A DNA stretch of 60,690 bases from Candidatus Poribacteria bacterium (lineage in GTDB: Bacteria; Poribacteria; WGA-4E; WGA-3G): contig JAPOZO010000102.1 of NCBI GenBank assembly GCA_026706025.1, forward strand, positions 1-60,690, given 5' to 3'. The notes beneath the pieces are model-generated. The model had not been told where the DNA came from and searched no databases. It saw only the letters and a program-made list of their open reading frames with translations. The position numbers and the translations under genes are program-made. Below, piece after piece: positions 1-60,690 of this stretch; the stretch's first letter is position 1; every line of letters starts with the position of its first letter.

Positions 1-620
1 TTGGCTGTGTGTACTGTCCGGGTGAAGCGGATAAAACTTCAGGCTGACTATAAGTTCCCGGAGAATCCGACAAAACAGGGTCAGGCTGTGTATACTGCGG
101 TGGAGACGGTGATAGCTGTGGGCTTGGCTGTGTGTACTGTCCGGGTGAAGCGGATAAAACTTCAGGCTGACTATAAGTTCCCGGAGAATCCGACAAAACA
201 GGGTCAGGCTGTGTATACTGCGGTGGAGACGGTGATAGCTGTGGGCTTGGCTGTGTGTACTGTCCGGGTGATGCCGACAACATCGGGTCCGGCTGCGTGT
301 ACTGTCCGGGTGATGCCGACAAAATTTCAGGCTGACTATAGGTTCCCGGAGACGCTGATAAAATCGTTGGTTGCGTGTATGCGCTTGGCGAATCGGAAAG
401 CACGGGTTCCGGTTGCGTGTACCGCGTCGGCGAGGCCGATAACTGCGGACTCGGTTGTGTGTATTGTCCCGGAGACGGCGATAACACCGGGTCCGGCTGT
501 GTATACTGCCCCGGTGAAGGCGACAGCTGCGTAGGCTGAGTATACTGTGCAGGCGAGGGCGATAACACCGGGTCCGGTTGCGTGTATTGTCCTGGTGATG
601 GTGATAAAATTGGAGGCGGT
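1..620. repeat. Tandem coding repeat (123-bp units plus diverged 39-42-bp units)
   Basis: Bases 1-123 and 124-246 are identical 123-bp units (41 codons on the minus strand, made of 14+14+13 residue sub-units). Diverged 39-42-bp units follow to about 620. The same 123-bp unit recurs from about 60297 to the window end, so the array spans the circular junction and its true copy number cannot be read from this contig. Confidence 0.9.
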
Positions 621-931
621 TGCGTGTACTGTGGTGGCGGATCCCTGAGTAAAAGCCTTGAATAATCATTAATCGAGACTCGTCTTGTTGCCGGTTTCTC
701 ATTTCCGCGTTCAGCTTTCAGAATTATATACGAATTAACAGGTAAAGGATTTTCCCATCGGACAACCAAATCTCCACGACGAATAGATGCCGTAATTCCA
801 GCAGAACCCCAAGCCGTAATTTCAGCTGCTACCGAATATTTCAAAAAATCAGAAATATTCCGAATATACGCCACAGTATCATTGTGTCGTATTAAAATAT
901 CTGGAATTCTAAACCATTCTAAGGGGTTCAT
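1..931 (-). CDS. Repeat-stalk tail fibre protein, N-terminal part (continues at 60690)
   Basis: The ATG is at 931 and the frame is open to base 1. Joining through the 25-bp end overlap keeps the frame and continues to the stop at 59752, giving about 614 residues. The first ~100 residues (starting MNPLEWFRIPDILIRH) look like a small beta-rich virion-anchoring domain. After that come 13-14 residue units of the type LSxSPGQYTQPxP, rich in Pro, Ser, Gln and Tyr with almost no charge, which suggests an extended polyproline-like rod. It lies 15 bp after a glycosyltransferase gene and before two large fibre genes, so a tail stalk that may be glycosylated is the best reading. The repeat number is uncertain because the assembly ends inside identical units. 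The family was not recognised. Confidence 0.75.
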   Translation of the reverse strand, partial: MNPLEWFRIPDILIRHNDTVAYIRNISDFLKYSVAAEITAWGSAGITASIRRGDLVVRWENPLPVNSYIILKAERGNEKPATRRVSINDYSRLLLRDPPPQYTQPPPILSPSPGQYTQPDPVLSPSPAQYTQPTQLSPSPGQYTQPDPVLSPSPGQYTQPSPQLSASPTRYTQPEPVLSDSPSAYTQPTILSASPGTYSQPEILSASPGQYTQPDPMLSASPGQYTQPSPQLSPSPPQYTQPDPVLSDSPGTYSQPEVLSASPGQYTQPSPQLSPSPPQYTQPDPVLSDSPGTYSQPEVLSASPGQYTQP

Positions 932-946
932 ACCTATTACCCACAT

Positions 947-2236
947 CTATGCCGCGTCTTTTGCCTGCATCCACTCTTCAGGCCATTCTACTTTTTGACG
1001 AGAATCAAGCCAATCTGAAACAATTACCGGTTTGCCGCTATCAATACGTTGTAGGTATGCATTATGCTGGGGAGCAAGATACTCCCTCGAAAAACGCAAC
1101 CCAGAATCGCGAAGGACATAAGGATCTATTTTATCGAGATTCTCAACAGCATGCACAGCGGCATCAATATTATTAGAATCAACACGGTAACCATTATACC
1201 CATGCTGGATTGTATCAAGGAATCCCCCTGAATTTGCTACGATCGGAACTGTCCCGGAAATCAATGCCTCAATAGCCACACCTCCAAATGTTTCATAAAC
1301 ACGTGCCAGACTTAACACTGCCTTCGCGTGTGATAGAAGATTTCTGCGTTCATCAGCCCCCACATATCCGAGTACTTCAACATTTGGACCCGGTTTTCTA
1401 CCAATTGACGCTTCCAAATCACCCGGTCCCGCTACAATCAATTTCATACCTGTGCGTTCTGCCACTTCTACTGCCTCTGTAATCCCTTTACCCGGTAAAA
1501 TCCGACCCAAGTAGAGGAGATACTCATCTTTCTCGACACTAAAATCAAACAGCGAAATATCATAAGGGTTAGGAATTATAGCGTCAGACAACGGTGGCGT
1601 TTCCCAATCTATACAAGTAAACAGAAGGTGTGGCTTACCATTTTCTATCTGGTGAGCAGCCTCTTTGAGAAAATCCCGCCATTTCAAATTGCTATAATAC
1701 ACGCCATAATGATAGTCACGCATAAAGGTACTTTGAAAAATCCGATACGGTAGAAATGCGCCGATATAACCAATACCAGGTTCAACATGCCGAACTGGGA
1801 GATCCTTTAACTCATGATAAAGATCACGTTGACCGCCAAAAGGAGCTGTCCAATATATGAAATCATCAGGTCTGTATCTTTTTTTCAGCGCGAAACCTGT
1901 ATCAAGTGCCCATCTTTTTCCCAGAAATTCAATTGCTTCTGGATTTTCAGGCTTAACATTTATGTCGATATGTCCCAAATTTTCATGAAAATTCGGATAT
2001 GCCTCTGAGAGTATATCCTCTGATGCGATAATAACTTTTTCATCACATTCCACATCACAAGTTTCGTAACCATAATAGATAACATGATGCCCCGCCGACT
2101 TGAGCATCCAACAATAATTCCGTGCTTTTTGCGACCAATGTGACAAAACGTAGTGCGGATTCGCTGGCGCGGTCGGTGTTCCCATGACATGGCATGTTAA
2201 AGGGTTGTCGTTGGGTAATTCAAAAAACGGATTCAT
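947..2236 (-). CDS. GT4-like glycosyltransferase in the tail module
   Basis: A 429-residue protein with the two-domain layout of GT-B glycosyltransferases. The C-terminal half shows a nucleotide-sugar binding stretch (YLGRILPGKGITEAVEVAER, about residues 241-260) and the GT4 signature with two spaced glutamates (YETFGGVAIEALISGTVPIV, about residues 315-334). There is no signal peptide, so it should act in the cytoplasm. It starts 13 bp after a tail-tip gene and ends 15 bp before the Ser/Thr-rich stalk gene, as part of one minus-strand operon. Phage glycosyltransferases are known to decorate virion proteins or DNA, or to modify receptors. Here the position suggests decoration of the stalk or fibres, which is inference. 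The donor sugar cannot be read. Confidence 0.85.
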   Translation of the reverse strand: MNPFFELPNDNPLTCHVMGTPTAPANPHYVLSHWSQKARNYCWMLKSAGHHVIYYGYETCDVECDEKVIIASEDILSEAYPNFHENLGHIDINVKPENPEAIEFLGKRWALDTGFALKKRYRPDDFIYWTAPFGGQRDLYHELKDLPVRHVEPGIGYIGAFLPYRIFQSTFMRDYHYGVYYSNLKWRDFLKEAAHQIENGKPHLLFTCIDWETPPLSDAIIPNPYDISLFDFSVEKDEYLLYLGRILPGKGITEAVEVAERTGMKLIVAGPGDLEASIGRKPGPNVEVLGYVGADERRNLLSHAKAVLSLARVYETFGGVAIEALISGTVPIVANSGGFLDTIQHGYNGYRVDSNNIDAAVHAVENLDKIDPYVLRDSGLRFSREYLAPQHNAYLQRIDSGKPVIVSDWLDSRQKVEWPEEWMQAKDAA

Positions 2237-6890: not shown

Positions 6891-9719
6891 CTAAAGCCTA
6901 TCTTCTTCTCGAAGTTCATCTTGGTAATCGGTGATTTCCCTCGTTTCATTTTCTCCGATTTTTAAGAACAACTGTCGCGCCCCAAACGCCTTATCCGGCG
7001 CAGCCGCTACGTTTGAAAGCAGACTGCCGATCGTATCTTTTATCCCGCCGGTGAGGTTCTTGATCTGTTCCGGGAAAAGTAGCGAGGCAGCCCCCAGCGC
7101 AACACCACCACCCGAAAGCGATCTGCCGATATTGCCGATATTTGCGAGTCCGGGAATGTTGCCTACTCCTGGTAACCCGATACCTGCCTGTTGTGCCGCG
7201 GCAACTTTCCGGATATTCGCTATCTTGGAAGCCGTCAGCGTATCATCCAAACGTTTCAAGATTTGATTTTCAACCACTGCCCTAAGAACGATGCGCAGCG
7301 ATTGTTGAATGAACGCCGTCGCGACGCTCTCAAAACTCTGTGCCCTACCTGTTGCCAAATCCAAGAACGTATTAGAAACGAGACTTGAAAACTGCCGATA
7401 TTGTCTGGCACGGGCATTGATACTGCGCTGTATGTCTCGCTCCTCGCCCCGGAGTACCCTGTTCAGGAATTGTCTGCCTTGTTCACCGGCAGCTTGGCGG
7501 ATATCGGTGAGCGTTTGTTGACCGCGTGCTTCTTCGGCGATGCGTTCATCGATGGCAGCCCCGCGGACAATCGGATCGGGTATCCGGTCCTCTAAATCTG
7601 TCGCAAAGGCGTAGTTCGCGATCTGCCGCATCACCGCCAACAAGCTGTGGCCTTGCCGTTCCGTCTCTTCAAAATCTCGCCGGAGCTGTGAGGTGAAATT
7701 GCCGTACTGGGCATCCGGGCTGCTGACGCGTGGAATTGCGTTTATCTGTCTCGTGAGTTGATCTATGTAGACTTGCCCCGCCTGTGCTGCAGCTTTGAAC
7801 CCTTCGACTTCAGCAGCACTAACAGCGTTCGCAGTGTCAATCCGTTGCTGTGAGAGCTGTTGCAGTAACCGTTGATTTTCAGCTGTGATCTGTCGCTCCG
7901 CTTGCAGCCGTTGTCTACCTAACTCAAATATCCGGGTTTGCAGTGTATTGTATGCCTCGGTCCCCGCTGTCTCTTGTGCGAGTGCGTTCTGGGCGTTCGC
8001 GATACGAGCATTATAGTAAGCGTTGCTCGCCGCGAGTGCTGCTTGGAAGCCGGTGGTTAACTGTTGCGGATTGATACTGATATTGAGTGCGTTGCGTGTA
8101 TCTTCCGCGTTTGCCCGGAGTTTCGCCAAAGTGAGACTGAAATTCTCGGCATTGCTTACAGCCTGTTCGGTAGACTTTGCGGTGCTTGTATTTGCAGAGG
8201 CTAAAGCGCGTAGGGCGTTAGCGTTGGTTGCGAGCTGCGTTTGAACTTCTTTGAGTGCTGCCCTTTTCGCGCTGAGCTGCCGATTCAACCCTTGTACCGA
8301 TTTCCCGGTGCGTCCGTTGATTTCATTTGCCAACGCTGCGATTTCTGTATTTAGTGTTCTCGCCTGTGTTGCGAGTCCGTTCTGAACATTCCTGAGATAT
8401 TCGGATTGCGCGGAGACGTTACCTTGGGCGGCTTGCAACCGCGCCAGTTCGGTCGTAATTTCTTTATAGCGTTGACCGGCTTCCGTATCTCTGCCTCGGA
8501 ATCTGAAATAGTTTGCGCGGCCTTCTGCTGCTGCGTCAAGTGCCTGTTTCTCTTGTTCCAAGAAAGCGATACGGTCTTCAAACGCTTTGTTCACTGCCCC
8601 GGCAGCCGTGGCGGTATTGAGTGCGGTTGTGAACCCTTCAACGGATTGTTTCGCAGCGTTTGTGTTTTGAATGAAGTTTGTGATATTATCAAAGAGTTCC
8701 GCGAAACCGCGTGCAGCACCGGAGACGACCGGTAGCAGCCTATCCCCGATCGCGATCTGGAGTTGATTGAATTCCTCCTGAAGGGCATCAATAGAACGGG
8801 CGTAAGAATCGACCGGCGCGGCAGGGATTTCCTGACGGAGTTTCGCTAAAATGGGTAAGAGAAACGTGCCTAATGTCTGACCGGAAGCATGAAAAGTTTT
8901 GTTCAGGCTATCCATGGAGCCATCGGTGTTGTAAACCTCTTGCGCGAGTTTATTGAAATTCGGGATGAGTTCTTTGATAGTCGAAAAGTTCTCTTGCGAG
9001 ATTTTGTTTTCACCGAACGCTTGTGTCAGCTGTAGCATCGCCCGCGAAGTGTCTGCGGCGTTACCGCCTAAGCCTACGATTGTTTGCCCGAAGGTGGTGA
9101 TAATCGCATCGACTTCTAAAGTGGTTGCCCCTGCTGCTCGCAGTGAATTAGAGTAGCGGATAATTTGGGGTGTATTGAGTCCGGGGAGTTTTGCGATCTC
9201 GTTGAAATCTCGGAGTCTGGCATCTGCTTGTGTGCCTTCAATGGCTCGGAGTCCCCGGAGTAAGCCCTCCATCTGCCCGGCAGAGCGAACGGACGATACG
9301 CCGAATTCAAAGATCTCGCGTGCAGCGAGTGCAGCACCTAAGCCTGTGAGTACCCCGCGGACACCGCCCAATGAATTCGCGAAGAGATCCGCACCTTGCC
9401 CGGCACTTACGAACCTACCGCGCACATCGCGAAGCCTACCGTTTGTGTCTCGCCAGATAGTGTTTTGCCGTTTCGCGGCGGTGGCTAATCGGTCTATTTG
9501 TGTTGCGCTCTGCTGTGATTCATCTCCGAGCCGGTCAATATCTCTTGAGGCGCTGCGCGAGCGATCGCCGAGTGCATCAATCGCTTCACCCGCGGCGCGT
9601 GCTTCAGATCGCGTGTCCTTAAACTCGGAGTCCAGCTGATCCACTTCTCGCTTGAGTCGCGAGAACGCTGCACGGGCACGCCTATCTTCTACCTCGAATG
9701 TCAAAAGAGTGTTTGGCAT
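6891..9719 (-). CDS. Tail tape measure protein
   Basis: 942 residues, mostly alpha-helical with long coiled coils (residues 1-110 and about 360-700) rich in Gln, Ala, Arg and Glu. Residues about 135-330 match the conserved tape-measure domain: helical pairs with GLNTPQIIRYSNSLRAAGA, LQLTQAFGENKISQENFSTI and IPNFNKLAQEVYN. The length fixes the tail length; by the usual 1.5 A per residue rule it would predict roughly 140 nm. A glycine-rich hydrophobic stretch near residue 860 (GIGLPGVGNIPGLANIGNIG) may be membrane-active during DNA ejection. It follows the chaperone genes, as in most siphoviruses. Confidence 0.93.
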   Translation of the reverse strand: MPNTLLTFEVEDRRARAAFSRLKREVDQLDSEFKDTRSEARAAGEAIDALGDRSRSASRDIDRLGDESQQSATQIDRLATAAKRQNTIWRDTNGRLRDVRGRFVSAGQGADLFANSLGGVRGVLTGLGAALAAREIFEFGVSSVRSAGQMEGLLRGLRAIEGTQADARLRDFNEIAKLPGLNTPQIIRYSNSLRAAGATTLEVDAIITTFGQTIVGLGGNAADTSRAMLQLTQAFGENKISQENFSTIKELIPNFNKLAQEVYNTDGSMDSLNKTFHASGQTLGTFLLPILAKLRQEIPAAPVDSYARSIDALQEEFNQLQIAIGDRLLPVVSGAARGFAELFDNITNFIQNTNAAKQSVEGFTTALNTATAAGAVNKAFEDRIAFLEQEKQALDAAAEGRANYFRFRGRDTEAGQRYKEITTELARLQAAQGNVSAQSEYLRNVQNGLATQARTLNTEIAALANEINGRTGKSVQGLNRQLSAKRAALKEVQTQLATNANALRALASANTSTAKSTEQAVSNAENFSLTLAKLRANAEDTRNALNISINPQQLTTGFQAALAASNAYYNARIANAQNALAQETAGTEAYNTLQTRIFELGRQRLQAERQITAENQRLLQQLSQQRIDTANAVSAAEVEGFKAAAQAGQVYIDQLTRQINAIPRVSSPDAQYGNFTSQLRRDFEETERQGHSLLAVMRQIANYAFATDLEDRIPDPIVRGAAIDERIAEEARGQQTLTDIRQAAGEQGRQFLNRVLRGEERDIQRSINARARQYRQFSSLVSNTFLDLATGRAQSFESVATAFIQQSLRIVLRAVVENQILKRLDDTLTASKIANIRKVAAAQQAGIGLPGVGNIPGLANIGNIGRSLSGGGVALGAASLLFPEQIKNLTGGIKDTIGSLLSNVAAAPDKAFGARQLFLKIGENETREITDYQDELREEDRL

Positions 9720-9736
9720 TGGGGTTAACTCCGGGG

Positions 9737-9760
9737 TCGCGAGTGAAACTCGCTCCTACA
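9737..9760. repeat. REP-like hairpin with GTAG foot
   Basis: The hairpin GCGAGT-gaa-ACTCGC is followed by CTCCTAC, which on the minus strand reads GTAGGAG before the stem. A near-identical copy lies at 12512-12534. It sits in the gap between the chaperone second part and the tape measure gene. Confidence 0.7.
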
Positions 9761-10007
9761 CATCGGAAGAAGCACTTTGCTCGGCTTCATCTGCTAATTC
9801 CGCCTCATGTTCTTTGCCGATGGCAGTGACGTACAGATCGATTTCATATTGGCTTTGGATAGGGATGTTGGGACCAAAGGCGTAATAACTTGGCTGCCGC
9901 TCGTTATCCTTTGCGGTGTAATAGAGGGCGAGGACTTCTTCCCTATTCTCCTCCTGCTGAATCCACGTTAGGAAACTGGGCGACCGATTTGCTCGGTCTG
10001 CTACCTC
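9756..10007 (-). CDS. Tail assembly chaperone, frameshift-expressed second part (T-like)
   Basis: An open frame of 83 codons lies between a TAG at 10008-10010 and the stop at 9756, in the +1 frame relative to the preceding gene. Its sensible protein text begins near SPSFLTWIQQEENREE and continues through ALYYTAKDNERQPSYYAFG to a charged C-terminus. It has no usable ATG near the front, so expression most likely comes from frameshifting within the G-like gene, as for lambda G/GT. It overlaps that gene by 65 bp and is followed by the tape measure gene. The shift site is not certain; AGGAGG stretches are near both the start of the overlap and the zero-frame stop. Confidence 0.65.
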   Translation of the reverse strand, partial: EVADRANRSPSFLTWIQQEENREEVLALYYTAKDNERQPSYYAFGPNIPIQSQYEIDLYVTAIGKEHEAELADEAEQSASSDV

Positions 10008-10479
10008 CTAAGAGTGCGTTGTGGAGGCTCATCACATAAAACGGGTCCCATGTCCGCATATCTTCAGCAGTCAAACCGGGGTGGCTAATGATACACGACT
10101 CAAGGATATTCAAGAGTTTCGTATCGTATTTCTTGACAGCGAGTTCATCTTGCAGCTTTTGTTCTTGCTCATCGTCAATTTCAATTTCACTTTCAGGATC
10201 AGGAATTCTGGCACTGGAAGCCTCGATGAGCGTGTGTCCGAGTAGCGTTTGGTAATAGATCGCTGTTTCGCCGGGTGTCATCGGTCGCATTTCAAAGTCA
10301 ATCGGGTCACCCCCTTCGGGGTCCGGGAAGCGAGCGACGATATTATCTGCTTCCAGTTTCTTTCCGAGTTTCTTCAAATCTCTGATGAAGTTAAGTTCGC
10401 CTTGTACCTCTTTCCGTTGCAATACTTGTGGCGAGTTGACGGCAGCCTTCGCCGCGATGTCTTCCATTTTTTTCGTCAT
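9943..10479 (-). CDS. Tail assembly chaperone (G-like)
   Basis: 178 residues, acidic and helical, no membrane segment. The start codon overlaps the stop of the tail tube gene by 4 bp (ATGA), showing translational coupling. Position between tube and tape measure genes, small size and an overlapping open frame downstream identify it as the chaperone that coats the tape measure during tail assembly. The central segment RMTPGETAIYYQTLLGH resembles no motif I can name. The extended form would be made by a +1 (or -2) frameshift into the frame at 9756-10007. Confidence 0.75.
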   Translation of the reverse strand: MTKKMEDIAAKAAVNSPQVLQRKEVQGELNFIRDLKKLGKKLEADNIVARFPDPEGGDPIDFEMRPMTPGETAIYYQTLLGHTLIEASSARIPDPESEIEIDDEQEQKLQDELAVKKYDTKLLNILESCIISHPGLTAEDMRTWDPFYVMSLHNALLGGSRPSKSVAQFPNVDSAGGE

Positions 10480-11969
10480 TCTGCAAACCCCTTCTCTGAA
10501 TAGAACCGCATTGATATTTCGTCAGGTGTTGTAGCCCCTACGGACCGGTTGGCTTCAAATGCGAGATTCCGTGTGACGGAGCCTCTGCCTTCGATGGGCA
10601 GTCCGGGGACTTCTGTGAGCCCGCAATTTGCGAATCGGCTTTCGACGAGTACCTGTCTACCGTCTGACAACCAGTTATAGTTTCGGATAACGATCGGCAC
10701 TTTGCGTTTCTCGAAATAGATGTCCTGCCAGTGTATCGTCTCGTTATTCTCGGTTGCATCATCGGTTTCATGGTAGATGCCGGCGTTGACGGTAACGGTG
10801 CGTGATTCTGTTTCACTGGTTACGGGTTGCCCTGCGAGCGGATCGCCTGTAAAGCCTTCGGGATCGACGTAGTTATGGTTGCCTTCTATATCGACGCTTG
10901 TCACTGCGATGGGTTCTGGCGCGTCGTCGCCATCGATGCGTGCGATAAGGTCCTCGAGGCTCTCGTCGGGTTCTCCGAGTACGACCGCTGTGCCGAGACT
11001 CGGATAAAAATTGAGGGGTCTGCGCGGATACTTTTTAAGGATACCATCATCAGCGCGCAAATTTGCCAAAGTGTTCGCGACGATGGTGGGATCAGCAAGG
11101 CTTCTCGCTTCCTGAACATAAGATGCCAGCAAGCCCAACAGCAGCCGGATATTCGCGCCGATCGACAACCGGAACAGATTCGGGATGATATTGTAAGCGA
11201 TATAGGGAGTAAACGCCTTGAGCATCTGAGATGTCCAGCCGTCGAAGGGGTTATTGTTCTCGTTGAGCGTCAACGCTGCCCATTTCGTATCCGGGAGGAA
11301 CTTGAGGGTTACACCTGTCGGCGCGGTGCCATTTCCCCAATCGAGTATAAATCTGTCGGCGCGGTGATAGAAATTTGTGGTTGTCTGTTTCTTTTCACCG
11401 TCCCCGAATGCAATTTCTTCGGTGGTTGGGGAATTGAACTGGTTGGAGCGTGAGCCGCGTTTTTGTCCGTAGGCTCGGATTTTACCTGCTCCAGAAGGGG
11501 AACCTGTTAAGGTGATCTCCAATTGGCCTGGCCATTTCGCGAGTGCCGTTTCATCATCGTTATCGATTGTCACGGTATTGCTGCTGGGGGCACCGATTTT
11601 GCCAGCGGGGATCTCCTGCGGTTTGAGGTCGGTATTCGTTGGGAGTGTGGTCGGGTTGAACCAACCGAGCAGCAGATGGATCGCGTCATCGGGTAGGAGT
11701 TCAAACTCCCATTCGCCGCCGCCACCACGTTTAGAGATGATGCTTTCTGCGGTCGCGCCACCACCGATAATGCTTTCGGATTCCGTTTCTTCTGCGGTCG
11801 GATCGAGTGTATTCCGTGTGAACACAAAATGGTTTCGGATGAGTTTCGCCAGTGAGGTTGTCGGGGCTTCCCCATCAAAAACATTTTCCCCGATGATGGG
11901 GACTCCGTATTTTAAGTTGCGGCCGATAAATATATAAGAATCGCCGCCTATTCTCCGTTTAGGTGCCAT
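10476..11969 (-). CDS. Major tail tube protein
   Basis: 497 residues, larger than typical tube proteins, so it probably carries an extra domain. The N-terminus (residues 1-70) has the look of phage tube proteins (SYIFIGRNLKYGVPIIGENV), and the last 120 residues contain strands typical of the tube fold with alternating hydrophobics (KVPIVIRNYNWLSDGRQVLV, VTRNLAFEANRSV). It lies immediately upstream of the chaperone gene. There is no signal peptide. An insertion around residues 120-350 could decorate the outside of the tail. Function is assigned from order and general features. Confidence 0.7.
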   Translation of the reverse strand: MAPKRRIGGDSYIFIGRNLKYGVPIIGENVFDGEAPTTSLAKLIRNHFVFTRNTLDPTAEETESESIIGGGATAESIISKRGGGGEWEFELLPDDAIHLLLGWFNPTTLPTNTDLKPQEIPAGKIGAPSSNTVTIDNDDETALAKWPGQLEITLTGSPSGAGKIRAYGQKRGSRSNQFNSPTTEEIAFGDGEKKQTTTNFYHRADRFILDWGNGTAPTGVTLKFLPDTKWAALTLNENNNPFDGWTSQMLKAFTPYIAYNIIPNLFRLSIGANIRLLLGLLASYVQEARSLADPTIVANTLANLRADDGILKKYPRRPLNFYPSLGTAVVLGEPDESLEDLIARIDGDDAPEPIAVTSVDIEGNHNYVDPEGFTGDPLAGQPVTSETESRTVTVNAGIYHETDDATENNETIHWQDIYFEKRKVPIVIRNYNWLSDGRQVLVESRFANCGLTEVPGLPIEGRGSVTRNLAFEANRSVGATTPDEISMRFYSEKGFAE

Positions 11970-11970
11970 A

Positions 11971-12204
11971 TTATTCTCCTGTCGGTTCTATAGTGATTTT
12001 CCCTCGGTAATCGTGTGAGATACGGGTCTTGACGAAGCCTCCAGTGTCCGTTTGCCGCCACGGTGACCAGTTCTGGAGACCGAAGCGTTTGACGAGTGCG
12101 TGTTTCGCGGACTTGACTGTATGCGCCTTGATCGTTTCTGCGATATGCTCAAGGATCGTGCCGTGCGGTGTGCAGCGGGTGTAGGTGAATTGGAAGTTTA
12201 GCAT
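11971..12204 (-). CDS. Small hypothetical tail-operon protein
   Basis: 77 residues, basic, no membrane segment. It begins inside the end of the preceding gene (7-bp overlap) and ends 1 bp before the tube gene, so it is part of the same transcript. The family was not recognised. Confidence 0.6.
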   Translation of the reverse strand: MLNFQFTYTRCTPHGTILEHIAETIKAHTVKSAKHALVKRFGLQNWSPWRQTDTGGFVKTRISHDYRGKITIEPTGE

Positions 12205-12497
12205 AGGATTTTTGGATTGCGATTGAACAGTCGCGCGAGTAGCCCGCGATTTTCGAGAGCCTTGATTTTCGCTTCTGCCGCGGTGAGGTGCTCCTGTGCT
12301 TCTTCCATCTTCGCTTTGAAGCGATCGCGTTGTCTGCGTGCCTCGTGCGTCTGAACCCGTATATCGAGTTTCTTGAGATCGGATTCGACGGCTTGCTCAA
12401 TGAACTTGGATTCTGAAAGCCCTAACGCCTTGGCGGCTTTCTGTACGCGTAGCTTCGTCTGTCTCGGTACATTTGAAGAGATGCGTTCTTTGGACAT
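12198..12497 (-). CDS. Ribbon-helix-helix protein with coiled-coil tail
   Basis: 99 residues. Residues 1-40 (RISSNVPRQTKLRVQKAAKA then LGLSESKFIEQAVESDL) fit a CopG/Arc-like ribbon-helix-helix DNA-binding fold: one strand and two helices. Residues 45-85 form a charged coiled coil. It could be a local regulator of the tail operon. A REP-like hairpin lies just upstream. It overlaps the following gene by 7 bp. Confidence 0.65.
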   Translation of the reverse strand: MSKERISSNVPRQTKLRVQKAAKALGLSESKFIEQAVESDLKKLDIRVQTHEARRQRDRFKAKMEEAQEHLTAAEAKIKALENRGLLARLFNRNPKILC

Positions 12498-12511
12498 AGT
12501 GTGGCTCCTTA

Positions 12512-12534
12512 TCGCGAGTGAAACTCGCTCCTAC
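12512..12534. repeat. REP-like hairpin with GTAG foot (copy of 9737-9760)
   Basis: The same GCGAGT-gaa-ACTCGC stem followed by CTCCTAC lies between 12498 and 12541. On the minus strand the order is GTAGGAG, stem, loop, stem. Confidence 0.7.
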
Positions 12535-12540
12535 AGGTGT

Positions 12541-13089
12541 TTAGGCAACCTTCTCGACGCGTAGGAAATGGCTCCTCGGTGAGCTCCCGTTTGCGGGAAA
12601 GAAAAAATAAAACTTTTCGGTGCCATCTGGTTCAAAGTCCATATAGATGAGTTCAAAGGTTGTCCGGATAGGTGCTGCAGCGGATGAATACCCCGGTGTC
12701 GATGCGAGAACAATATCATCTGTGCCTGTGTTTATTTTTTTCAGGTCAACCCTAAAAGTGGTAGTTGTCGCATTCACGTAGCCTTGAAAACAGAGATGAT
12801 ACCGTCCTTCTGGAAACAATAAGACCGAATTGTTGGGACCGGATCCGATGTCTATATCGGCTTCAGCACTGGCGTGGGTGATGCTGAGCAGGTCATTTTT
12901 CCCGCCGTCGAGGATTCGATCCGCGGTTGTTTTAAATTCGGCTGCGCGCTGGTTTCCTGTGCCGGCAGGTGTGTAGTGACCACCGAACTGTTTCGTCTGG
13001 TTCTTCCCGAAATAATAGCTAACAGGATTATTGCCACCACCGCCGCCTCGGTTTCCGTAAAGCCCGCCGACGATTCCGCCACGTATCAT
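12541..13089 (-). CDS. Hypothetical glycine-rich N-terminus, beta-sandwich virion protein
   Basis: 182 residues. It opens with a Gly-rich segment (GGIVGGLYGNRGGGGGNNPV) and then strands such as YHLCFQGYVNATTTTFRVDL and IRTTFELIYMDFEP, which fit a jelly-roll or carbohydrate-binding-like beta sandwich. A GGAG ribosome site precedes the ATG. It is paired with the next small beta-rich gene, 3 bp apart. A minor tail or head-fibre role is plausible from position; the family was not recognised. Confidence 0.6.
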   Translation of the reverse strand: MIRGGIVGGLYGNRGGGGGNNPVSYYFGKNQTKQFGGHYTPAGTGNQRAAEFKTTADRILDGGKNDLLSITHASAEADIDIGSGPNNSVLLFPEGRYHLCFQGYVNATTTTFRVDLKKINTGTDDIVLASTPGYSSAAAPIRTTFELIYMDFEPDGTEKFYFFFPANGSSPRSHFLRVEKVA

Positions 13090-13092
13090 AGT

Positions 13093-13395
13093 TTAACTCC
13101 CATGTGGATCGTCTCTCGCGATCCAGACTTCAGCACCGGCAGTTGCAGTGAAGAGTCGGTAATCGAAGCCCTTCTTGAGGGTTATATCGAGAACATCACC
13201 TTCCGCTGTGAGTTTGATTTCGTTACCGTTGTAGCGTGCATTTTTCCAAGCACCGCCCTCGCGCCGTATTTGCACGAAGACTTCATGTGCGGTGTAGGTA
13301 TCACAAAAGAGCTGGTATTCGCCATACGCGTCCGTGCCGAGGATGTCGGCATCAGCCGTATGGATTTGATCGGTTTTCAGGATAACTTTCGCCAT
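13093..13395 (-). CDS. Small hypothetical beta-rich protein
   Basis: 100 residues from the ATG at 13395, chosen because GGAG sits 7 bases before it; an in-frame ATG at 13410 lacks a ribosome site. Alternating strands (AYGEYQLFCDTYTAHEVFVQ) and no membrane segment. It is probably co-expressed with the neighbour ending at 12541. Function unknown. Confidence 0.6.
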   Translation of the reverse strand: MAKVILKTDQIHTADADILGTDAYGEYQLFCDTYTAHEVFVQIRREGGAWKNARYNGNEIKLTAEGDVLDITLKKGFDYRLFTATAGAEVWIARDDPHGS

Positions 13396-13419
13396 GGAGG
13401 TACTCCACATTAGTTAGAA

Positions 13420-13532
13420 TGGTTATCAGTTGTCAGTACGGTTTTTCTGCGAAAAACCTTTCGGTTATCAGTTACAAGAGGGCTCTTAACCGATAACTGA
13501 AAGCGCAGCGTACTGAAAACCGACAACTATTA
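13420..13532. repeat. Dispersed palindromic intergenic repeat (TTATCAG / CAGTACG family)
   Basis: Contains CAGTACG, a hairpin GTTTTTC-tgc-GAAAAAC, then TTATCAGTTA and an inverted TAACTGA with GCGTACTGA. Related copies lie at 26785-26895, 47845-47970, 54861-54915 and 56037-56083, with looser relatives at 21199-21285, 29118-29197 and 45686-45727. All are between genes. Confidence 0.8.
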
Positions 13533-13556
13533 TAATGTAGAGCGTGAGGCGTTCAG

Positions 13557-13616
13557 AATGGGAATTTGGTAGGAAAACAATACAATAGCAATACAATAGC
13601 AATACATTTGCGAAAA
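13557..13616 (+). repeat. Left 60-bp inverted repeat of a 1.9-kb cassette
   Basis: Matches the reverse complement of 15407-15466 at 57 of 60 positions. The core holds an 11-bp direct repeat (CAATACAATAG) in two full copies and part of a third. The pair encloses three minus-strand genes. Confidence 0.9.
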
Positions 13617-13652
13617 TGCGATGGACTTAACGTAATAGGGAAAACGTTAAGT

Positions 13653-14651
13653 TCAGATTTTCATGGCGAGTTGCGCGCCCATGAGTTGTTTGATGGCGTG
13701 GCTGTAGCCTTTGGGTGTGCCGTGCTGCATATTGCAGAGGCGCGGGTATGGTGGGAGGTATGGGTTTTTCGGGGTAAACTGCTCCCAGGTGTTTCCCTCA
13801 ATCATGAGTGAATCGCAGAAGTTGTAGGCGTGTTGGCCAGTTTTTATCAGATAGAGTGCCGTGAGTGCATCCATTCCGAGATGTTTCCATTTTATGAACC
13901 ACTCGGATGCTTCCCCGACAAGGCCTGCGGCGTGGTATTGCAGAATGGATGTATCGATATGCCAGTTCGGTTCGCCATTTCCATTGAACAGGTAACTCGC
14001 AACATTCGGTGGATCCTGTTTTTTGTCATAACCCTCACCGTAGACAGCTCTGTTCGCATCATGTAGCCAGCGTGCGCGTTTGCCAGCATCCATAAAATAC
14101 TGTGTCAGTTGCACTTGGGTCGTCGGGGTATCGATCCCACTCCTTTTTAGATGTTCGAGGGGCATCCATGACGCTTTCGTTTCAATTGTGTTTGCGCTGT
14201 GGAGGCTATAATCCGCGACCCCCCAACCCCAATTATGCTGCAGGACGTGCCCGAGTGGGAGTTTGATTTGGTTTTTGTCTCCGCGGAACGCCCAGTAGTT
14301 GACATCCCACATACAGATAGAATCGTAGCCGAACCCGTGTTCTCCGAAGGTGATAAACGGGGCTGCGATCTCTTTGATCATGGTCGTGTCGTACTGAGGC
14401 AGGTCAAAGTTTTTGAGCGCAGTTTGGATACGGTCTTCGGTGCTGTCCTCGCACGTTATATAAAGATGTACGCCTTTCATGACGAGATCGGTGTTATTAA
14501 TCAGACTGGCGAGGGTCCAGGGTAGCATCTTCTCTTGCCAATCAATATCTGCGGCATTGATGGGGATAACAAGAGCGGTATGATTGCCGGGGATGAATGG
14601 CACTTCGTATTCAAGCGGGCATTCGGGGAGTTGGGTACGTATATCGTTCAA
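13653..14651 (-). CDS. Putative GT-A-type glycosyltransferase
   Basis: 332 residues from a TTG start at 14651 with an AAGGAG-type ribosome site. Residues ~25-70 have the beta-alpha-beta start of a nucleotide-sugar transferase (TALVIPINAADIDWQEKMLP, then VHLYITCEDST), and a possible DxD-like metal site occurs in SICMWDVNYWAF near residue 115. There is no signal or membrane segment. It is in the cassette bounded by the 60-bp inverted repeats. A role in decorating fibres or capsid, together with the GT4-like enzyme at 947-2236, is inference. Confidence 0.5.
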   Translation of the reverse strand: MNDIRTQLPECPLEYEVPFIPGNHTALVIPINAADIDWQEKMLPWTLASLINNTDLVMKGVHLYITCEDSTEDRIQTALKNFDLPQYDTTMIKEIAAPFITFGEHGFGYDSICMWDVNYWAFRGDKNQIKLPLGHVLQHNWGWGVADYSLHSANTIETKASWMPLEHLKRSGIDTPTTQVQLTQYFMDAGKRARWLHDANRAVYGEGYDKKQDPPNVASYLFNGNGEPNWHIDTSILQYHAAGLVGEASEWFIKWKHLGMDALTALYLIKTGQHAYNFCDSLMIEGNTWEQFTPKNPYLPPYPRLCNMQHGTPKGYSHAIKQLMGAQLAMKI

Positions 14652-14685
14652 TGTGTTGTCTCCTTTTCCATTTGGCTAACATTGA

Positions 14686-14707
14686 ACAGGCTAACAGCCT
14701 ATTCTAC
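14686..14707. repeat. REP-like hairpin with GTAG foot
   Basis: AGGCT-aac-AGCCT stem followed by ATTCTAC, giving GTAG on the minus strand before the stem. A related copy is at 56855-56878. It lies between two minus-strand genes. Confidence 0.65.
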
Positions 14708-14715
14708 AAAAGAGG

Positions 14716-15018
14716 CTACTTTGCCTTTGCGGGCAGCATTGCGCCGTTTTGGATCGTAAAGAGCCGGTTATCTTCAAAGGTAACCATCAGCGCGCCTTCG
14801 TTATCGGGGTTTGATAGCACGTCACCCAAAATAGATACGCCGTCCTGTTGGCAGCTTTTGTGTCCATCCTTCGCGAAATAGTCTACGCGATCGACACACT
14901 GATACCAGATCGTTTGCCCTTCCGTTTCTGATTCCGCCTTTTTCTTTTCGATATATGCCTCGACCTTCCCCGGCAAGACGGGTTCATATTCTTCCGGTAC
15001 GTTCATCCTGTTTCGCAT
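14716..15018 (-). CDS. Small hypothetical protein
   Basis: 100 residues, acidic N-terminus and a beta-rich second half (GALMVTFEDNRLFTIQNGAM). The start codon follows the upstream gene's stop directly, and the ribosome site AAGGAGGG lies inside that gene, so the two are co-translated. Function not recognised. Confidence 0.6.
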   Translation of the reverse strand: MRNRMNVPEEYEPVLPGKVEAYIEKKKAESETEGQTIWYQCVDRVDYFAKDGHKSCQQDGVSILGDVLSNPDNEGALMVTFEDNRLFTIQNGAMLPAKAK

Positions 15019-15321
15019 CTATCCCTCCTTTTTGTTTCGTGTCAATTTCGTCACGAATCGGACTTCCCTATCAATTGCGCTACGGACAACCTGCACGGCA
15101 GAGACACCTTTCAGGCGCGCGACTTCTCTGATATTCTGCAGCTGCTCAGGTGTGAGATATTGTCGCCGTTCTTTTTCTGCTTGAATATCTCTATAGTCAT
15201 CAATTGCGCGGCGGACGATTTCAACCTGCGGCAAGCCTGTTCTTTGACTTTCTAAATCGAGCCAATCGAGTTGTTGTTGCGGCATCCTGAAAGAGGCGGG
15301 TTTCATTTTTCGGGCGGGCAA
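15019..15321 (-). CDS. Tandem ribbon-helix-helix DNA-binding protein
   Basis: 100 residues holding two copies of a ribbon-helix-helix pattern: residues 7-43 (PASFRMPQQQLDWLDLESQR then TGLPQVEIVRRAIDDY) and residues 55-92 (LTPEQLQNIREVARLKGV then SAVQVVRSAIDREVRF). Two RHH units in one chain would form an internal pseudo-dimer. RHH proteins bind short direct repeats, and 11-bp repeats occur just upstream at 15407-15466, so self-regulation is plausible. The TTG start at 15321 has a good ribosome site; an ATG at 15306 is the alternative. Confidence 0.65.
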   Translation of the reverse strand: MPARKMKPASFRMPQQQLDWLDLESQRTGLPQVEIVRRAIDDYRDIQAEKERRQYLTPEQLQNIREVARLKGVSAVQVVRSAIDREVRFVTKLTRNKKEG

Positions 15322-15406
15322 TGCTGTCTCCTTGTGGGGAAGGGTTAAAATACTACCAACAATTATAGCACAATTTCAGGCGTTTTGAAACTGTTTTCGT
15401 CCCTAT

Positions 15407-15466
15407 TTTTCCCAAATGTATTGCTATTGTATTGCTATTGTATTGTTTTCCCACCGAATTCCCATT
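15407..15466 (-). repeat. Right 60-bp inverted repeat of a 1.9-kb cassette
   Basis: Reverse-complement partner of 13557-13616 with three mismatches. It contains the same 11-bp direct repeats, which could be an operator for the adjacent RHH protein. Confidence 0.9.
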
Positions 15467-15572
15467 TTAGACACCAACCCCTCCACATTATAATTGAAAG
15501 CAGAACATTAAACGGTTGTGTGGCTTCGTCATTTGACGGTGCATAGGTATCTAAAAAAATATGTTTTAAATC

Positions 15573-15627
15573 TGTCTGAAACGTGTTTGAAACATGTTTG
15601 AAGCATGTCTGAAACATGTCTGAAGGT
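15573..15627 (+). repeat. Five 11-bp direct repeats before the small terminase gene
   Basis: Five consecutive units of the form TGTyTGAArCA lie at 15573, 15584, 15595, 15606 and 15617, ending 5 bases before the start codon at 15633. The 11-bp pitch puts all units on one DNA face. Candidate terminase recognition site (pac/cos) or autoregulatory operator. Confidence 0.85.
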
Positions 15628-15632
15628 AAAAA

Positions 15633-36703: not shown

Positions 36704-37079
36704 TTTACTATATCCTCCCCGCGTAGACGTGATTATAGATGGGAAAAACATCCTGACACGCCATTGAATGCGTTTTTCCATAAATTGAGTGTGACGAACG
36801 CTTTAGCATTGGATTCACCAGCCCAGTTTATTATCCCCCTGCTAAGGTGGGAGGGTGGCAGAAACGGAGTAAGGCTCCGAGTCTTAGCAGTGCCACCCAA
36901 AACTGGTTTAATTAATATATCACAATTTTAATAAAATTTGCAAGATTTTCTTAAAATTGTGCAAAATTATGAGATTTTCACAATCTCTGCTGTGTTAGGT
37001 TCGTCATTATAGTGCAAACTGGAGAGGTCATACCCGCGGAGTGCGAGTTCGAGGAATAGGGTCTCGTCTTTCTCTTTTT
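36704..37079. other. Intergenic region with a structured element and a gene remnant
   Basis: Contains the interleaved-stem element at 36823-36906, an AT-rich stretch at 36910-36970, and the gene fragment at 36967-37090. No other gene was seen. Confidence 0.6.
36823..36906. other. 84-bp element with interleaved stems (pseudoknot)
   Basis: The ends CCAGTTT and AAACTGG are inverted repeats. Inside, CTGCTAAG (36839) pairs with CTTAGCAG (36883), GGGTGGCA (36853) pairs with TGCCACCC (36891), and CGGAG (36865) pairs with CTCCG (36875). The first two pairs cross each other, making an H-type pseudoknot with a nested hairpin on either strand. It may be a small mobile element or a structured leader of the minus-strand gene at 36703. 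Confidence 0.6.
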
Positions 37080-42378: not shown

Positions 42379-42395
42379 AGTATTATCTCCATTCT

Positions 42396-56885: not shown

Positions 56886-57959
56886 TTAGCTGCCGATAGG
56901 ACCGCGAACGGCGTTTTCTCTGAGGGTGAGGTTGAGGATACCGGTATTTTGGGGATCCGGGAACCTTATCAAGAAATACTGTCCTTCTTCGCCGTGCCAT
57001 TGGCCATCGGTATCAAAACCGTTCTGGTTCGGTGTCGGATCGCCCGCAGGCGGTGTTGCGAGTAGCGTCCAGTCGGTGCCAGTCAGATCGGCAGGCATGG
57101 CGGCATGTATATCCGGTGGCGAAGTGCCAGTCCATTTATAGGGGAGTGCTGTCCCGAGTCGCACGCCCTCCTCGATAAAAATCTCTGTCAGCGTATTATT
57201 GACGTGCCACCCTGTGACCAATACATTGAATGCAACGAGCACATCAACAGGGGTGCCGAGGTCATAATTCGCGGGTATCTCGTAATCGACGATGCGTGGG
57301 ACGATGGTCCCGTAACTCACCGTTTTCGGTGTGGCAACCACCACGTTATCCCAAACGCCACTACTCGCTTTCAGAGCGTATCCATCCGCCGACACCACAA
57401 ACCGCCCCTGCTTTTCCTCCGCAATGTGAACGACCAACGCATACGCCGCATCCTCGCCAACGAGATAGTACGCCGCTATCCCCAAAATCCCATCGCCGGC
57501 GTTGCTACTCGGATCGCTAAACTGAAAAATTGTCTTACTCGGCGCGATCACATTCTCACCGAAAGTGACAGGGAGCACGACCACGCCACTGTCTCGATAG
57601 TCCACTGTGCCGAAGGCGACAGAGATCGTTGTGATGTTATCGTAAGCCACCGTCACCGGCGTTGAAACCACTGCTTCCGGTGTACTGCTGCCCTCACGCG
57701 TCACCATCCCCGTGATCGCGACTTGCAGCGAGCCCTTCACATCTTCGGGCAGTTGGAACATCACGTTATGCGTCGCCGAATTCATATCGTCATCCGGCAG
57801 CACTTCAAACATCACACCTGTGATACCGTTGCCCGACACAGGTGTGACCGTAAGCGTGGCAGCCGTTAAATCTGTAACGCTAACCTCCAGCGTTATATTG
57901 ACTGTGAAATTTCCGGGTTGTGTGCCTGAAGGGGCGGTTATAGTTGCATTGATTGCCAT
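56886..57959 (-). CDS. Tail fibre protein with Ig-like domains
   Basis: 357 residues without signal or membrane segment, composed of two or three beta-sandwich modules (PGNFTVNITLEVSVTDLTAA; YGTIVPRIVDYEIPANYDLG). It resembles the N-terminal modules of 2250-4496 in style. It is the last gene of the tail operon, 4 bp after the preceding gene. Possibly the distal receptor-binding protein. Confidence 0.65.
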   Translation of the reverse strand: MAINATITAPSGTQPGNFTVNITLEVSVTDLTAATLTVTPVSGNGITGVMFEVLPDDDMNSATHNVMFQLPEDVKGSLQVAITGMVTREGSSTPEAVVSTPVTVAYDNITTISVAFGTVDYRDSGVVVLPVTFGENVIAPSKTIFQFSDPSSNAGDGILGIAAYYLVGEDAAYALVVHIAEEKQGRFVVSADGYALKASSGVWDNVVVATPKTVSYGTIVPRIVDYEIPANYDLGTPVDVLVAFNVLVTGWHVNNTLTEIFIEEGVRLGTALPYKWTGTSPPDIHAAMPADLTGTDWTLLATPPAGDPTPNQNGFDTDGQWHGEEGQYFLIRFPDPQNTGILNLTLRENAVRGPIGS

Positions 57960-57963: not shown

Positions 57964-59715
57964 TTATGTTAATGCGTCTAAAAATACCGGATTGTCCAAA
58001 CCAGATGGTAGAAACAGATGAAAATCCCAAATGTAACGAGTTGCGTGAACTTCAGGGTTTATTCTAAAAATTGTAAGATAAGTGGAATCTCTGCTATATA
58101 TATTATTACCTATCACCTTAAATCCAGTGCCAATAGTAATCTGAGTCTGTGCACTCTGGTTGTAAAAAGGAATCTCTCTATTTTGACTAAATTTTTCACG
58201 ATCAAAAGCCCGTAATCTATAAGTATTATGGACACGGTTTATAATACGTCCCCATATTTCTTCTGCCGTTACCGATAGTCCTTCAGCACTAATACTTACA
58301 GTATTCGATCCAGTTCTCCTTGTTAATTCTGTGCCATTGGCAGACGGTATAGGAATCACTGACATTCCTCGCCACTGCGTATGTCCCTGACTGAAATAGA
58401 TATACAATTCATTATTATACTCCCCCATTCCTTCAGCGATAAGATTAGCACCGGCTGCGCTTGGAAAAGTATTTTTTCTATCTTGCGTAAGCCGAGATCC
58501 GTCGGCAGCACTTTCTATCGTATCCGCTTCAAAAGTATAAAGTGCTTTTTCATCAGCTGAACCACCCAAGTTCAGTATAAAAACATCACCATTACGATTA
58601 ACAGCAAGTCCGCCGAAATCCGGTCTCATTAAAGTAGTTGGCAGCAGCAACCTTTTTATACGAGGCGCTATAGTTCCGTTAGGAGCCCCCGTGTGAAAAA
58701 TATACAGCTCGTTATTGGTTCTATCTGATGATTTATACTCAATGGAATAAACAGTTCGTCCTCCATAAACCAGCACAGAAACAGGCGTATCAGAGATCCA
58801 AGGGCTTGCTACACGAAAAAAGGCCCTATACACCTGACCTTCTTCAAGGTTTGGGATAATTATCGTTATCATATTGTTCGCGATTGTGATAACCGCATCT
58901 GTCCATTCGGTCAATTCCCCGCTATCAACATTTTCGATCTGATACTGATAAGCGTTTGCACCGGATACCACGGGGAACTTTATGGTCGCGCTTAAGTGTC
59001 CGGGTTCAACAGTAGTATTCCGCAGGTCGATATTCCCGCGCCCTGTACCAAATCGATTCCAATTATCATCACCATCAAACTGCCATTCATATTCGATGGC
59101 GTGCTGTACGTCCGGGAGAGTAACTTCCGCAAAATTCCCGAACAGTCCGCTCACAACCGGTGTCCCTAATGCGGGCGGCGCGCCTGCTTCAATCGTATAC
59201 GGTTGATTTTTCATCACATCACCTCCTATATGCGGTGCTACCAGTTCGATAACCCCTTGCGATACCGTGAAATTAGCATCCGCACTAATCTCTCCATCTA
59301 CTAATGCACCTTCCGAGTTCGTTTCCAATCCTAAGCCGAGCAATAAAGTATTGGCAGTGACTTCGTTCGGCGGATTCGCAATCGGAATTGGAAGATTAAT
59401 AGGCACACCCCGATACAGATGAATATCCGGCAACGTACCAAAAATCGGTGCGGCGGGTATAACATTGAACGCTATATCCCTTTCAAGTATAGTATTGTCC
59501 GAATAAGTTGCTTCTATGTGCCAGTTTAATCCATTTAACAACTCTCTCGGAGTCCCATAGATTTTTACCTCGTTATCGGATGACCGCCAATCATATCCGA
59601 AGTATTTCATATCCCCAGTAACCTCCACAGTTGTCGGGTTACCGGTAATTGAGACCGGCAGGCGGTAATCTGTATCAATAATTATGTTTTGCTCGGATAC
59701 CATCGCAATCGACAT
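57964..59715 (-). CDS. Large tail fibre / spike protein
   Basis: 583 residues. N-terminal beta-rich domains (residues 1-180), a fibronectin-like part at about 200-330 (VVSGANAYQYQIENVDSGEL, ...FFRVASPW), then repeated blades with LYIFHTGAPNG and LYIYFSQGH that suggest a beta-propeller. It probably binds host surface. It follows the stalk gene with 36 bp between. Confidence 0.65.
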   Translation of the reverse strand: MSIAMVSEQNIIIDTDYRLPVSITGNPTTVEVTGDMKYFGYDWRSSDNEVKIYGTPRELLNGLNWHIEATYSDNTILERDIAFNVIPAAPIFGTLPDIHLYRGVPINLPIPIANPPNEVTANTLLLGLGLETNSEGALVDGEISADANFTVSQGVIELVAPHIGGDVMKNQPYTIEAGAPPALGTPVVSGLFGNFAEVTLPDVQHAIEYEWQFDGDDNWNRFGTGRGNIDLRNTTVEPGHLSATIKFPVVSGANAYQYQIENVDSGELTEWTDAVITIANNMITIIIPNLEEGQVYRAFFRVASPWISDTPVSVLVYGGRTVYSIEYKSSDRTNNELYIFHTGAPNGTIAPRIKRLLLPTTLMRPDFGGLAVNRNGDVFILNLGGSADEKALYTFEADTIESAADGSRLTQDRKNTFPSAAGANLIAEGMGEYNNELYIYFSQGHTQWRGMSVIPIPSANGTELTRRTGSNTVSISAEGLSVTAEEIWGRIINRVHNTYRLRAFDREKFSQNREIPFYNQSAQTQITIGTGFKVIGNNIYSRDSTYLTIFRINPEVHATRYIWDFHLFLPSGLDNPVFLDALT

Positions 59716-59751: not shown

Positions 59752-60690
59752 CTAACTATCACCTTCCAGTGCCGTTATTCTTGTCCCGAAATCCGCAAGA
59801 ACCGCATGCACCGTTATAGCAGGCACGCCATAATAAACCCTATTCGAGTTCATCACAAGATTACCCGAATAATCTTGAAATGGCGTATTCGCAATAACTA
59901 AATCCCTAAATGAATTATCGTTAAGAACCAAAATGCCTGGTGGTGTCGATGTTAAAATTGGCTCAGGCTGGCTATAAGCCGCCGGTGATGGTGAAAGTTG
60001 CGGCTCAGGCTGGCTATAAGCCGCCGGTGATGGTGAAAGTTGCGGGTCCGGTTGCGTGTACTGCCCTGGAGACGGTGATAACTGTGGGCTTGGCTGTGTG
60101 TACTGTGGTGGCGAGGCAGACAACACCGGATTCGGTTGCGTATACTGTCCTGGAGATGCGGACAGCATTTCAGGCTGACTATAAGTTCCCGGTGAATCCG
60201 ACAAAACAGGGTCCGGCTGTGTGTACTGCCCTGGAGACGGCGATAACTGTGGACTCGGCTGTGTGTACTGTGGTGGCGAGGCAGACAACACCGGGTTTGG
60301 CTGTGTGTACTGTCCGGGTGAAGCGGATAAAACTTCAGGCTGACTATAAGTTCCCGGAGAATCCGACAAAACAGGGTCAGGCTGTGTATACTGCGGTGGA
60401 GACGGTGATAGCTGTGGGCTTGGCTGTGTGTACTGTCCGGGTGAAGCGGATAAAACTTCAGGCTGACTATAAGTTCCCGGAGAATCCGACAAAACAGGGT
60501 CAGGCTGTGTATACTGCGGTGGAGACGGTGATAGCTGTGGGCTTGGCTGTGTGTACTGTCCGGGTGAAGCGGATAAAACTTCAGGCTGACTATAAGTTCC
60601 CGGAGAATCCGACAAAACAGGGTCAGGCTGTGTATACTGCGGTGGAGACGGTGATAGCTGTGGGCTTGGCTGTGTGTACTGTCCGGGTGA
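59752..60690 (-). CDS. Repeat-stalk tail fibre protein, C-terminal part (starts at 931)
   Basis: The frame is open from the window end to the stop at 59752. It continues the Pro/Ser/Gln/Tyr repeats (LSPSPPQYTQPDPV, LSDSPGTYSQPEV and LSASPGQYTQPSPQ) and then leaves the repeat for a ~65-residue end (ILVLNDNSFRDLVIANTPFQ ... ITALEGDS), which looks like a trimerisation or fibre-docking domain. An internal ATG at 60615 is not the true start. The full gene with the part at 1-931 encodes about 614 residues. Confidence 0.75.
   Translation of the reverse strand, partial: SPGQYTQPSPQLSPSPPQYTQPDPVLSDSPGTYSQPEVLSASPGQYTQPSPQLSPSPPQYTQPDPVLSDSPGTYSQPEVLSASPGQYTQPSPQLSPSPPQYTQPDPVLSDSPGTYSQPEVLSASPGQYTQPNPVLSASPPQYTQPSPQLSPSPGQYTQPDPVLSDSPGTYSQPEMLSASPGQYTQPNPVLSASPPQYTQPSPQLSPSPGQYTQPDPQLSPSPAAYSQPEPQLSPSPAAYSQPEPILTSTPPGILVLNDNSFRDLVIANTPFQDYSGNLVMNSNRVYYGVPAITVHAVLADFGTRITALEGDS
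59950..60690. repeat. Tandem coding repeats, second half of the stalk array
   Basis: From about 59950 the units are diverged. From about 60297 four starts of the same 123-bp unit occur 123 bp apart (60297, 60420, 60543, 60666), the last cut by the window end. The last 25 bases equal bases 1-25. Confidence 0.9.

What the first reader, a model, noticed from the sequence alone, without database searches (positions are those of the whole stretch)
1..2236. Repeat stalk next to a glycosyltransferase: possible glycosylated tail fibre
The stalk is built from uncharged LSxSPGQYTQPxP repeats with regular Ser, Thr and Tyr positions, and the GT4-like gene lies 15 bp upstream in the same operon. A second putative glycosyltransferase lies at 13653-14651. 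Enzyme and repetitive acceptor encoded together suggest a self-contained virion glycosylation unit.
Basis: inference. Interest (0 to 1): 0.7.

Follow-up and report, generated by a model that had tools for sequence, protein, structure and literature searches.

The report
Phage fibre stalk with adjacent glycosyltransferase
A virus of a sponge-dwelling bacterium carries a long repetitive tail-fibre gene right beside a sugar-attaching enzyme gene, and relatives show that the two are kept and exchanged together, so the virus probably coats its own fibre with sugar.

Summary
The window is an entire 60.7 kb contig of a Candidatus Poribacteria genome bin. It carries a complete siphophage head-tail module plus Rep3, ParA-like and integrase genes, so it looks like a phage-plasmid. 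The rest lies at 59752-60690. The joined protein is at least 532 aa: an N-domain, 26 units of LSxSPxxY(T/S)QP, and a short C-domain.

The gene 947-2236 is a genuine GT4 glycosyltransferase (phrog_3408) with its catalytic residues intact. All six strong stalk-N-domain relatives in 84 Poribacteria genomes have a relative of this enzyme beside the stalk. The repeat differs (Pro/Gln-rich or collagen-like) but is always Ser/Thr-rich. Tail-tip identity (77% vs 26%) runs opposite to stalk and enzyme identity, so stalk and enzyme travel as a cassette. Three Synechococcus phages also have the enzyme within two genes of collagen-like fibre genes.

Phage-directed glycosylation of the fibre is the best reading (about 0.6). 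Relatives without a stalk also exist.

The parts
947..2236 (-). GT4 glycosyltransferase, 429 aa, phrog_3408 family
   Evidence: PF00534 E 4.9e-21; phrog_3408 E 9e-48; R245, K250, E315 and E323 invariant in 9 homologues
638..931 (-). Stalk protein, conserved N-terminal domain (start ATG at 931)
   Evidence: Profile A4 finds 6 relatives with E<1e-30 in 84 Poribacteria genomes; alignment
1..637 (-). Stalk repeat region, first part (13-14 aa units LSxSPxxY(T/S)QPxP)
   Evidence: positions 1-271 equal 60420-60690
59938..60690 (-). Stalk repeat region, continuation across the contig ends (last 271 bp duplicate 1-271)
   Evidence: Exact 271-bp suffix-prefix overlap and in-frame join
59752..59937 (-). 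Stalk C-terminal domain ending RITALEGDS
   Evidence: similar C-terminal ends in L015, L016 and L018
2250..4496 (-). Tail-tip-like protein upstream of the GT in the same late run of genes
   Evidence: phrog_1101 tail, weak; 77% identical in G004 and G029, 26% in G015
57964..59715 (-). Next gene after the stalk, homologue in the same slot of the G004 phage
   Evidence: 67% identity over the first 238 aa with G004
56886..57959 (-). Next gene of the run, conserved in related phages
   Evidence: 53% identity with G004
13653..14651 (-).
   Evidence: hhalign probability 91% over 68 columns to the GT-A-like domain of relatives; DSD reads DYS; no library hit

Best explanation
The pair is a tail-fibre glycosylation cassette of a Poribacteria phage-plasmid. 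The stalk protein is a tail fibre: its N-domain is the conserved part and probably attaches to the tail tip, and the Ser/Thr/Tyr-rich Pro-rich repeats form an extended rod. The adjacent cytosolic retaining GT4 enzyme transfers sugar from a host nucleotide-sugar to hydroxyl residues of the repeats before or during tail assembly, so the released virion carries a sugar-coated fibre. Shown: genes, adjacency, intact catalytic motif, co-occurrence, cassette exchange, conserved hydroxyl positions. Inferred: that the stalk is the substrate, which residue is modified, which sugar, and what the coat is for (shielding, solubility, rod stiffening or adhesion inside the sponge).
For: GT4 family and catalytic residues. 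Six of six stalk-N-domain relatives with E<1e-30 are beside the GT in Poribacteria phages; in G029 the two contigs break inside the repeat but the stalk's 3' end adjoins the GT. Opposite phylogenies: tail tip 77% (G004, G029) vs 26% (G015), but N-domain 46% and GT 74% with G015 against 25-29% and 28-32% with G004 and G029. Gene order is swapped (stalk then GT in G004 and G024, GT then stalk here) yet adjacency is kept. In 19 distinct DNA units S2, S4 and Y8 are invariant and position 9 is only T or S despite 2-4 synonymous codons each. All associated stalks are 20-27% S+T against 11.3 +/- 3.3% in other window ORFs. In three Synechococcus phage species the homologous GT lies within two genes of a collagen-like fibre gene, with a 2OG-Fe(II) oxygenase close by in S-CAM7 and ACG-2014f. 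No transmembrane-like segment in the GT.
Against: No biochemical or proteomic evidence. Physical linkage alone could make neighbours move together. The same GT family occurs without a stalk beside a radical SAM-like gene in Pseudoalteromonas and in G004:C123 with both flanks visible. Attachment of the N-domain to the tail is inferred. No sugar-nucleotide gene was found among the scanned window proteins. The hydroxyl positions could be conserved for rod structure alone.
Confidence: 0.6

Rival explanations
1. The GT modifies the host cell surface (O-antigen or capsule) to block superinfection or alter receptors, and sits next to the fibre because receptor binding and receptor alteration are exchanged together.
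For: This is how tail-fibre-region GTs of pelagimyophages were read by their describers (PMC7029224). Host-range modules are commonly exchanged together, which would also give the pattern. GT4 enzymes are typical of cell-surface glycan synthesis (weak hits).
Against: The enzyme lies in the middle of the late tail gene run and has no transmembrane-like segment, unlike classical lysogenic-conversion systems (own knowledge). It tracks repeat stalks of two different chemistries, and in cyanophages it is accompanied by a 2OG-Fe(II) oxygenase beside collagen-like proteins, which fits protein modification better.
Confidence: 0.2
2. The GT glycosylates another virion protein (tail tip, tube or capsid), as in mycobacteriophages, and the stalk is just its neighbour.
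For: Capsid and tail glycans are documented in mycobacteriophages (Freeman 2023, cited in PMC11256854 and PMC12619734).
Against: Tail-tip identity does not track the GT, whereas stalk type does. The neighbour that recurs is the stalk.
Confidence: 0.12
3. Chance or selection-neutral neighbours: a GT moron gene that happened to insert beside the fibre.
For: GTs are frequent phage accessory genes. G004:C123 and Pseudoalteromonas relatives lack a stalk.
Against: Adjacency is retained at about 30% identity, with swapped gene order, in Poribacteria siphophages and three cyanophage species. Repeat genes are rare: 2 loci among about 71 window ORFs and 3 among 159 in S-CBWM1.
Confidence: 0.08

Closest known systems
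Virion glycosylation of mycobacteriophages (Che8 type; Freeman et al. 2023, cited in PMC11256854 and PMC12619734)
   Same: Phage-encoded glycosyltransferases proposed to modify the phage's own virion proteins.
   Different: There the glycans are reported on capsid and tail tube subunits. Here the inferred acceptor is a repetitive fibre stalk encoded beside the enzyme. No mass spectrometry exists here.
Collagen-like fibres with GT and 2OG-Fe(II) oxygenase in Synechococcus phages S-CAM7 and ACG-2014f
   Same: Same GT family (phrog_3408) within two genes of Ser/Thr-rich repeat fibres.
   Different: The fibre is true Gly-X-Y collagen there (PF01391 in S-CAM7) and Pro/Gln-rich in the window, and the window has no oxygenase in the scanned genes. 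I found no published functional test.
Mimivirus collagens with L230 and a collagen glucosyltransferase (PMC9546862)
   Same: Virus encodes both the repetitive fibre protein and its modifying enzymes.
   Different: Different enzymes, eukaryotic giant virus, hydroxylysine chemistry.
BclA exosporium collagen-like glycoprotein
   Same: Repetitive surface filament carrying O-linked glycans (own knowledge; BclA tetrasaccharide in PMC6222408).
   Different: Bacterial spore protein; not related by sequence as far as known.
Serine-rich repeat adhesins with dedicated glycosyltransferases
   Same: Repetitive Ser-rich acceptor and GT encoded together (own knowledge).
   Different: Requires accessory Sec export and an anchored cell-wall protein; none seen here.

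Membership tests
GT4 glycosyltransferase / phrog_3408 | Significant match to the family profile | tested here: met
   PF00534 75 bits vs cut-off 26.4; phrog_3408 E 9e-48
GT4 glycosyltransferase / phrog_3408 | Catalytic EX7E motif and basic R/K pair of the donor site | tested here: met
   E315-X7-E323, R245 and K250 invariant in 9 homologues
GT4 glycosyltransferase / phrog_3408 | GT-B fold | not testable with these tools
Phage-encoded virion glycosylation system | Enzyme gene inside the late structural module of a complete phage | tested here: met
   Terminase, portal, major head protein, tape measure and tail genes; GT within the minus-strand tail gene run
Phage-encoded virion glycosylation system | Covalent glycan on a virion protein, lost without the enzyme | not testable with these tools
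   Needs virion glycoproteomics
Phage-encoded virion glycosylation system | Enzyme and acceptor co-occur and co-vary | tested here: met
   6 of 6 stalk relatives; opposite identities
Phage tail fibre with collagen-like shaft | Gly-X-Y repeats | tested here: not met
   Window stalk is 4% Gly, 25% Pro; Gly-rich repeats only in relatives L015, L018 and L021
Phage tail fibre | Encoded in the tail module with a conserved N-terminal domain and exchangeable shaft | tested here: met
   presence on the virion not testable
   DYS in place of DSD in the alignment, no library hit

The most novel reading that the evidence does not exclude
Marine phages carry exchangeable fibre-glycosylation cassettes: an attachment N-domain with an interchangeable Ser/Thr-rich rod, and a matched modifying enzyme ranging from a single GT4 to a ~1000-aa fusion of a GT-A-like domain, a methyltransferase-like domain and GT4, so that the phage builds its own methylated oligosaccharide coat on the fibre and can swap coat and rod together.
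Probability: 0.35. Interest if true: 0.75.

Novelty: new variant of a known kind. Interest (0 to 1): 0.55.

Why it matters
If true, phages of uncultured sponge symbionts and of Synechococcus glycosylate their own fibres with dedicated, matched enzymes. That would turn some phage-encoded glycosyltransferases now annotated as host-takeover or LPS genes into virion-modification genes. It makes a direct test possible on isolated cyanophages, and offers enzymes that may decorate simple repeat peptides.

Tried and rejected
Second GT at 13653-14651: tested and downgraded. L013 gene 9487-10449 between GT and stalk looked GT-B-like by eye, but hhalign against the GT4 alignment gave 0.4% and Pfam and PHROG gave nothing, so it is unassigned. 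IMG/VR scans with the GT and GT alignments found only the known G004 contig. Profile A6 found no solved structure. Rfam and tRNA scans of the window were empty. CRISPR spacers from G017:C58 gave no convincing match to these phages. Tail-tip loci without the stalk (L066-L070) lack the GT, but most are cut by contig ends, so this is a weak control.

Full report
What the window is. The window is the whole of contig C102 (60,690 bp) in a 6.27 Mb, 103-contig genome bin. Genome relatives that carry the related genes are titled Candidatus Poribacteria. The contig carries a large terminase subunit, portal, major head protein, tape measure and tail genes, together with a Rep3 initiator, a ParA-like ORF (read from its sequence) and a tyrosine integrase. 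It is best read as a phage-plasmid.

The observation. ORF 2-946 (-) contains LSxSPxxYxQPxP repeats and begins just after the GT-like ORF 947-2236 (-). With the start at 931, where homologues begin, the gap is 15 bp. The first and last 271 bp of the contig are identical and lie inside a 123-bp tandem repeat, and the frame continues from 1 into 60690-59752. The gene therefore runs across the contig ends. Joined at minimal length it encodes about 532 aa with 26 units and a C-terminal domain. The actual copy number of the 123-bp unit is unknown. The region is acidic rather than uncharged (14 D, 8 E, 2 R).

The enzyme. The 429-aa protein matches PF00534 (E 4.9e-21) and phrog_3408 glycosyltransferase (E 9e-48), and solved glycosyltransferases such as the tetrahydrobiopterin glucosyltransferase 5zer (E 1.3e-16). 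R245, K250, E315 and E323 are invariant in nine homologues, as expected for an active retaining GT4 enzyme (own knowledge of the family). No transmembrane-like segment is present.

Enzyme and stalk occur together. In 84 Poribacteria genomes the GT profile has nine hits and the stalk N-domain profile six strong hits. All six stalks have the GT as neighbour or with at most one gene or a short gap between: window, G015 (L013), G053 (L021), G004:C177 (L015), G024 (L018) and G029, where the assembly breaks inside the repeat. The rods differ: Pro/Gln-rich in the window and G015, Gly/Thr-rich GTGITGATTKG or GYTGYTG in the others. Their S+T content is 20-27% against 11.3 +/- 3.3% in the window's other ORFs. 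In G004, G024 and G029 the enzyme is a ~1000-aa protein: a GT-A-like domain with DSD, a methyltransferase-like domain (weak Methyltransf_24 and phrog_21658 hits) and the GT4 domain.

They travel as a cassette. The window's tail-tip protein is 77% identical to those of G004 and G029 and 26% to that of G015. Its GT is 74% identical to that of G015 and 28-32% to those of G004 and G029. The stalk N-domain is 46% against 25-29%. Repeat type follows the enzyme, not the tail. Gene order also differs (GT before stalk here, stalk before GT in G004 and G024), yet adjacency is retained. Physical linkage can explain joint transfer, so this supports but does not prove an enzyme-substrate relation.

Acceptor positions are conserved. 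Among 19 distinct DNA units, S2, S4, P5, Y8, Q10 and P11 are invariant although each uses two to four synonymous codons. Position 9 is only T or S, while positions 3, 6 and 7 vary. The hydroxyl positions look selected, whether for glycosylation or for rod structure.

Outside Poribacteria. In the annotated phage collection, full-length relatives occur only in Synechococcus phages S-CAM7, ACG-2014f and S-CBWM1. In S-CAM7 and S-CBWM1 the GT directly follows a collagen-like fibre gene. In ACG-2014f two small genes lie between a collagen triple-helix gene and the GT; one of them looks like a methyltransferase by eye only. S-CAM7 and ACG-2014f also carry a 2OG-Fe(II) oxygenase close to the GT, and S-CAM7 a second weakly GT4-like protein. 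S-CBWM1 is annotated with sugar-nucleotide genes as well. Against exclusivity, a Pseudoalteromonas plasmid relative lies next to a radical SAM-like gene without any stalk, and G004:C123 shows none.

The second GT. The protein at 13653-14651 has no library hit. Only its first ~70 residues align to the GT-A-like domain of the relatives (hhalign 91%), and the second Asp of the DSD motif is replaced (DYS). It may be a degenerate relative and should not be counted as an active second GT.

Interpretation. The best reading is a fibre-glycosylation cassette: a host-supplied nucleotide sugar, a cytosolic GT4 and a repetitive rod as acceptor. Rivals are modification of the host surface, as inferred for pelagimyophage GTs (PMC7029224), or of another virion protein as in mycobacteriophages (Freeman 2023, cited in PMC11256854 and PMC12619734). 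My limited search of open papers found no report linking this GT family to repeat fibres.

Noticed in passing
window 36089-36781 (-): A second tandem-repeat protein (63-bp unit, FAREVDKAGQSRHLMRGLARD), outside the tail module, unrelated to the stalk.
   Followed up: partly
window 1-271 and 60420-60690: Exact terminal overlap of 271 bp: the contig is circular or the repeat is collapsed; a gene is split across the ends.
   Followed up: yes
window 48997-50301, 41758-42423, 37080-37718: Rep3 initiator, ParA-like and tyrosine integrase genes in a contig with a full head-tail module: a phage-plasmid of Poribacteria.
   Followed up: partly
window 51218-54766: 1182-aa protein with lamin-tail domain; its relatives accompany the related phage loci L015, L016 and L018.
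   Followed up: no
L015 9664-12669, L018 2252-5269: About 1000-aa fusion of a GT-A-like domain, a methyltransferase-like domain and GT4, directly beside collagen-like stalks.
   Followed up: partly
L076 6219-10155: Pseudoalteromonas plasmid: radical SAM-like protein, peptidase-like protein and a phrog_3408-type GT in a row, possibly a glycosylated peptide locus (read by eye, not scanned).
   Followed up: no
L071 (G017:C58) 7912-15919: CRISPR array of 90 repeats; a fragment of the stalk N-domain and of a gene beside the L013 stalk (relic prophage) lies at its edge. No convincing spacer match to these phages.
   Followed up: partly
L013 7046-7990, L017 4687-5934, L070 9429-10376, L071 8289-9245: Metalloprotease-like, dockerin-like proteins with signal-like N-termini recur beside these phage tail loci.
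   Followed up: no
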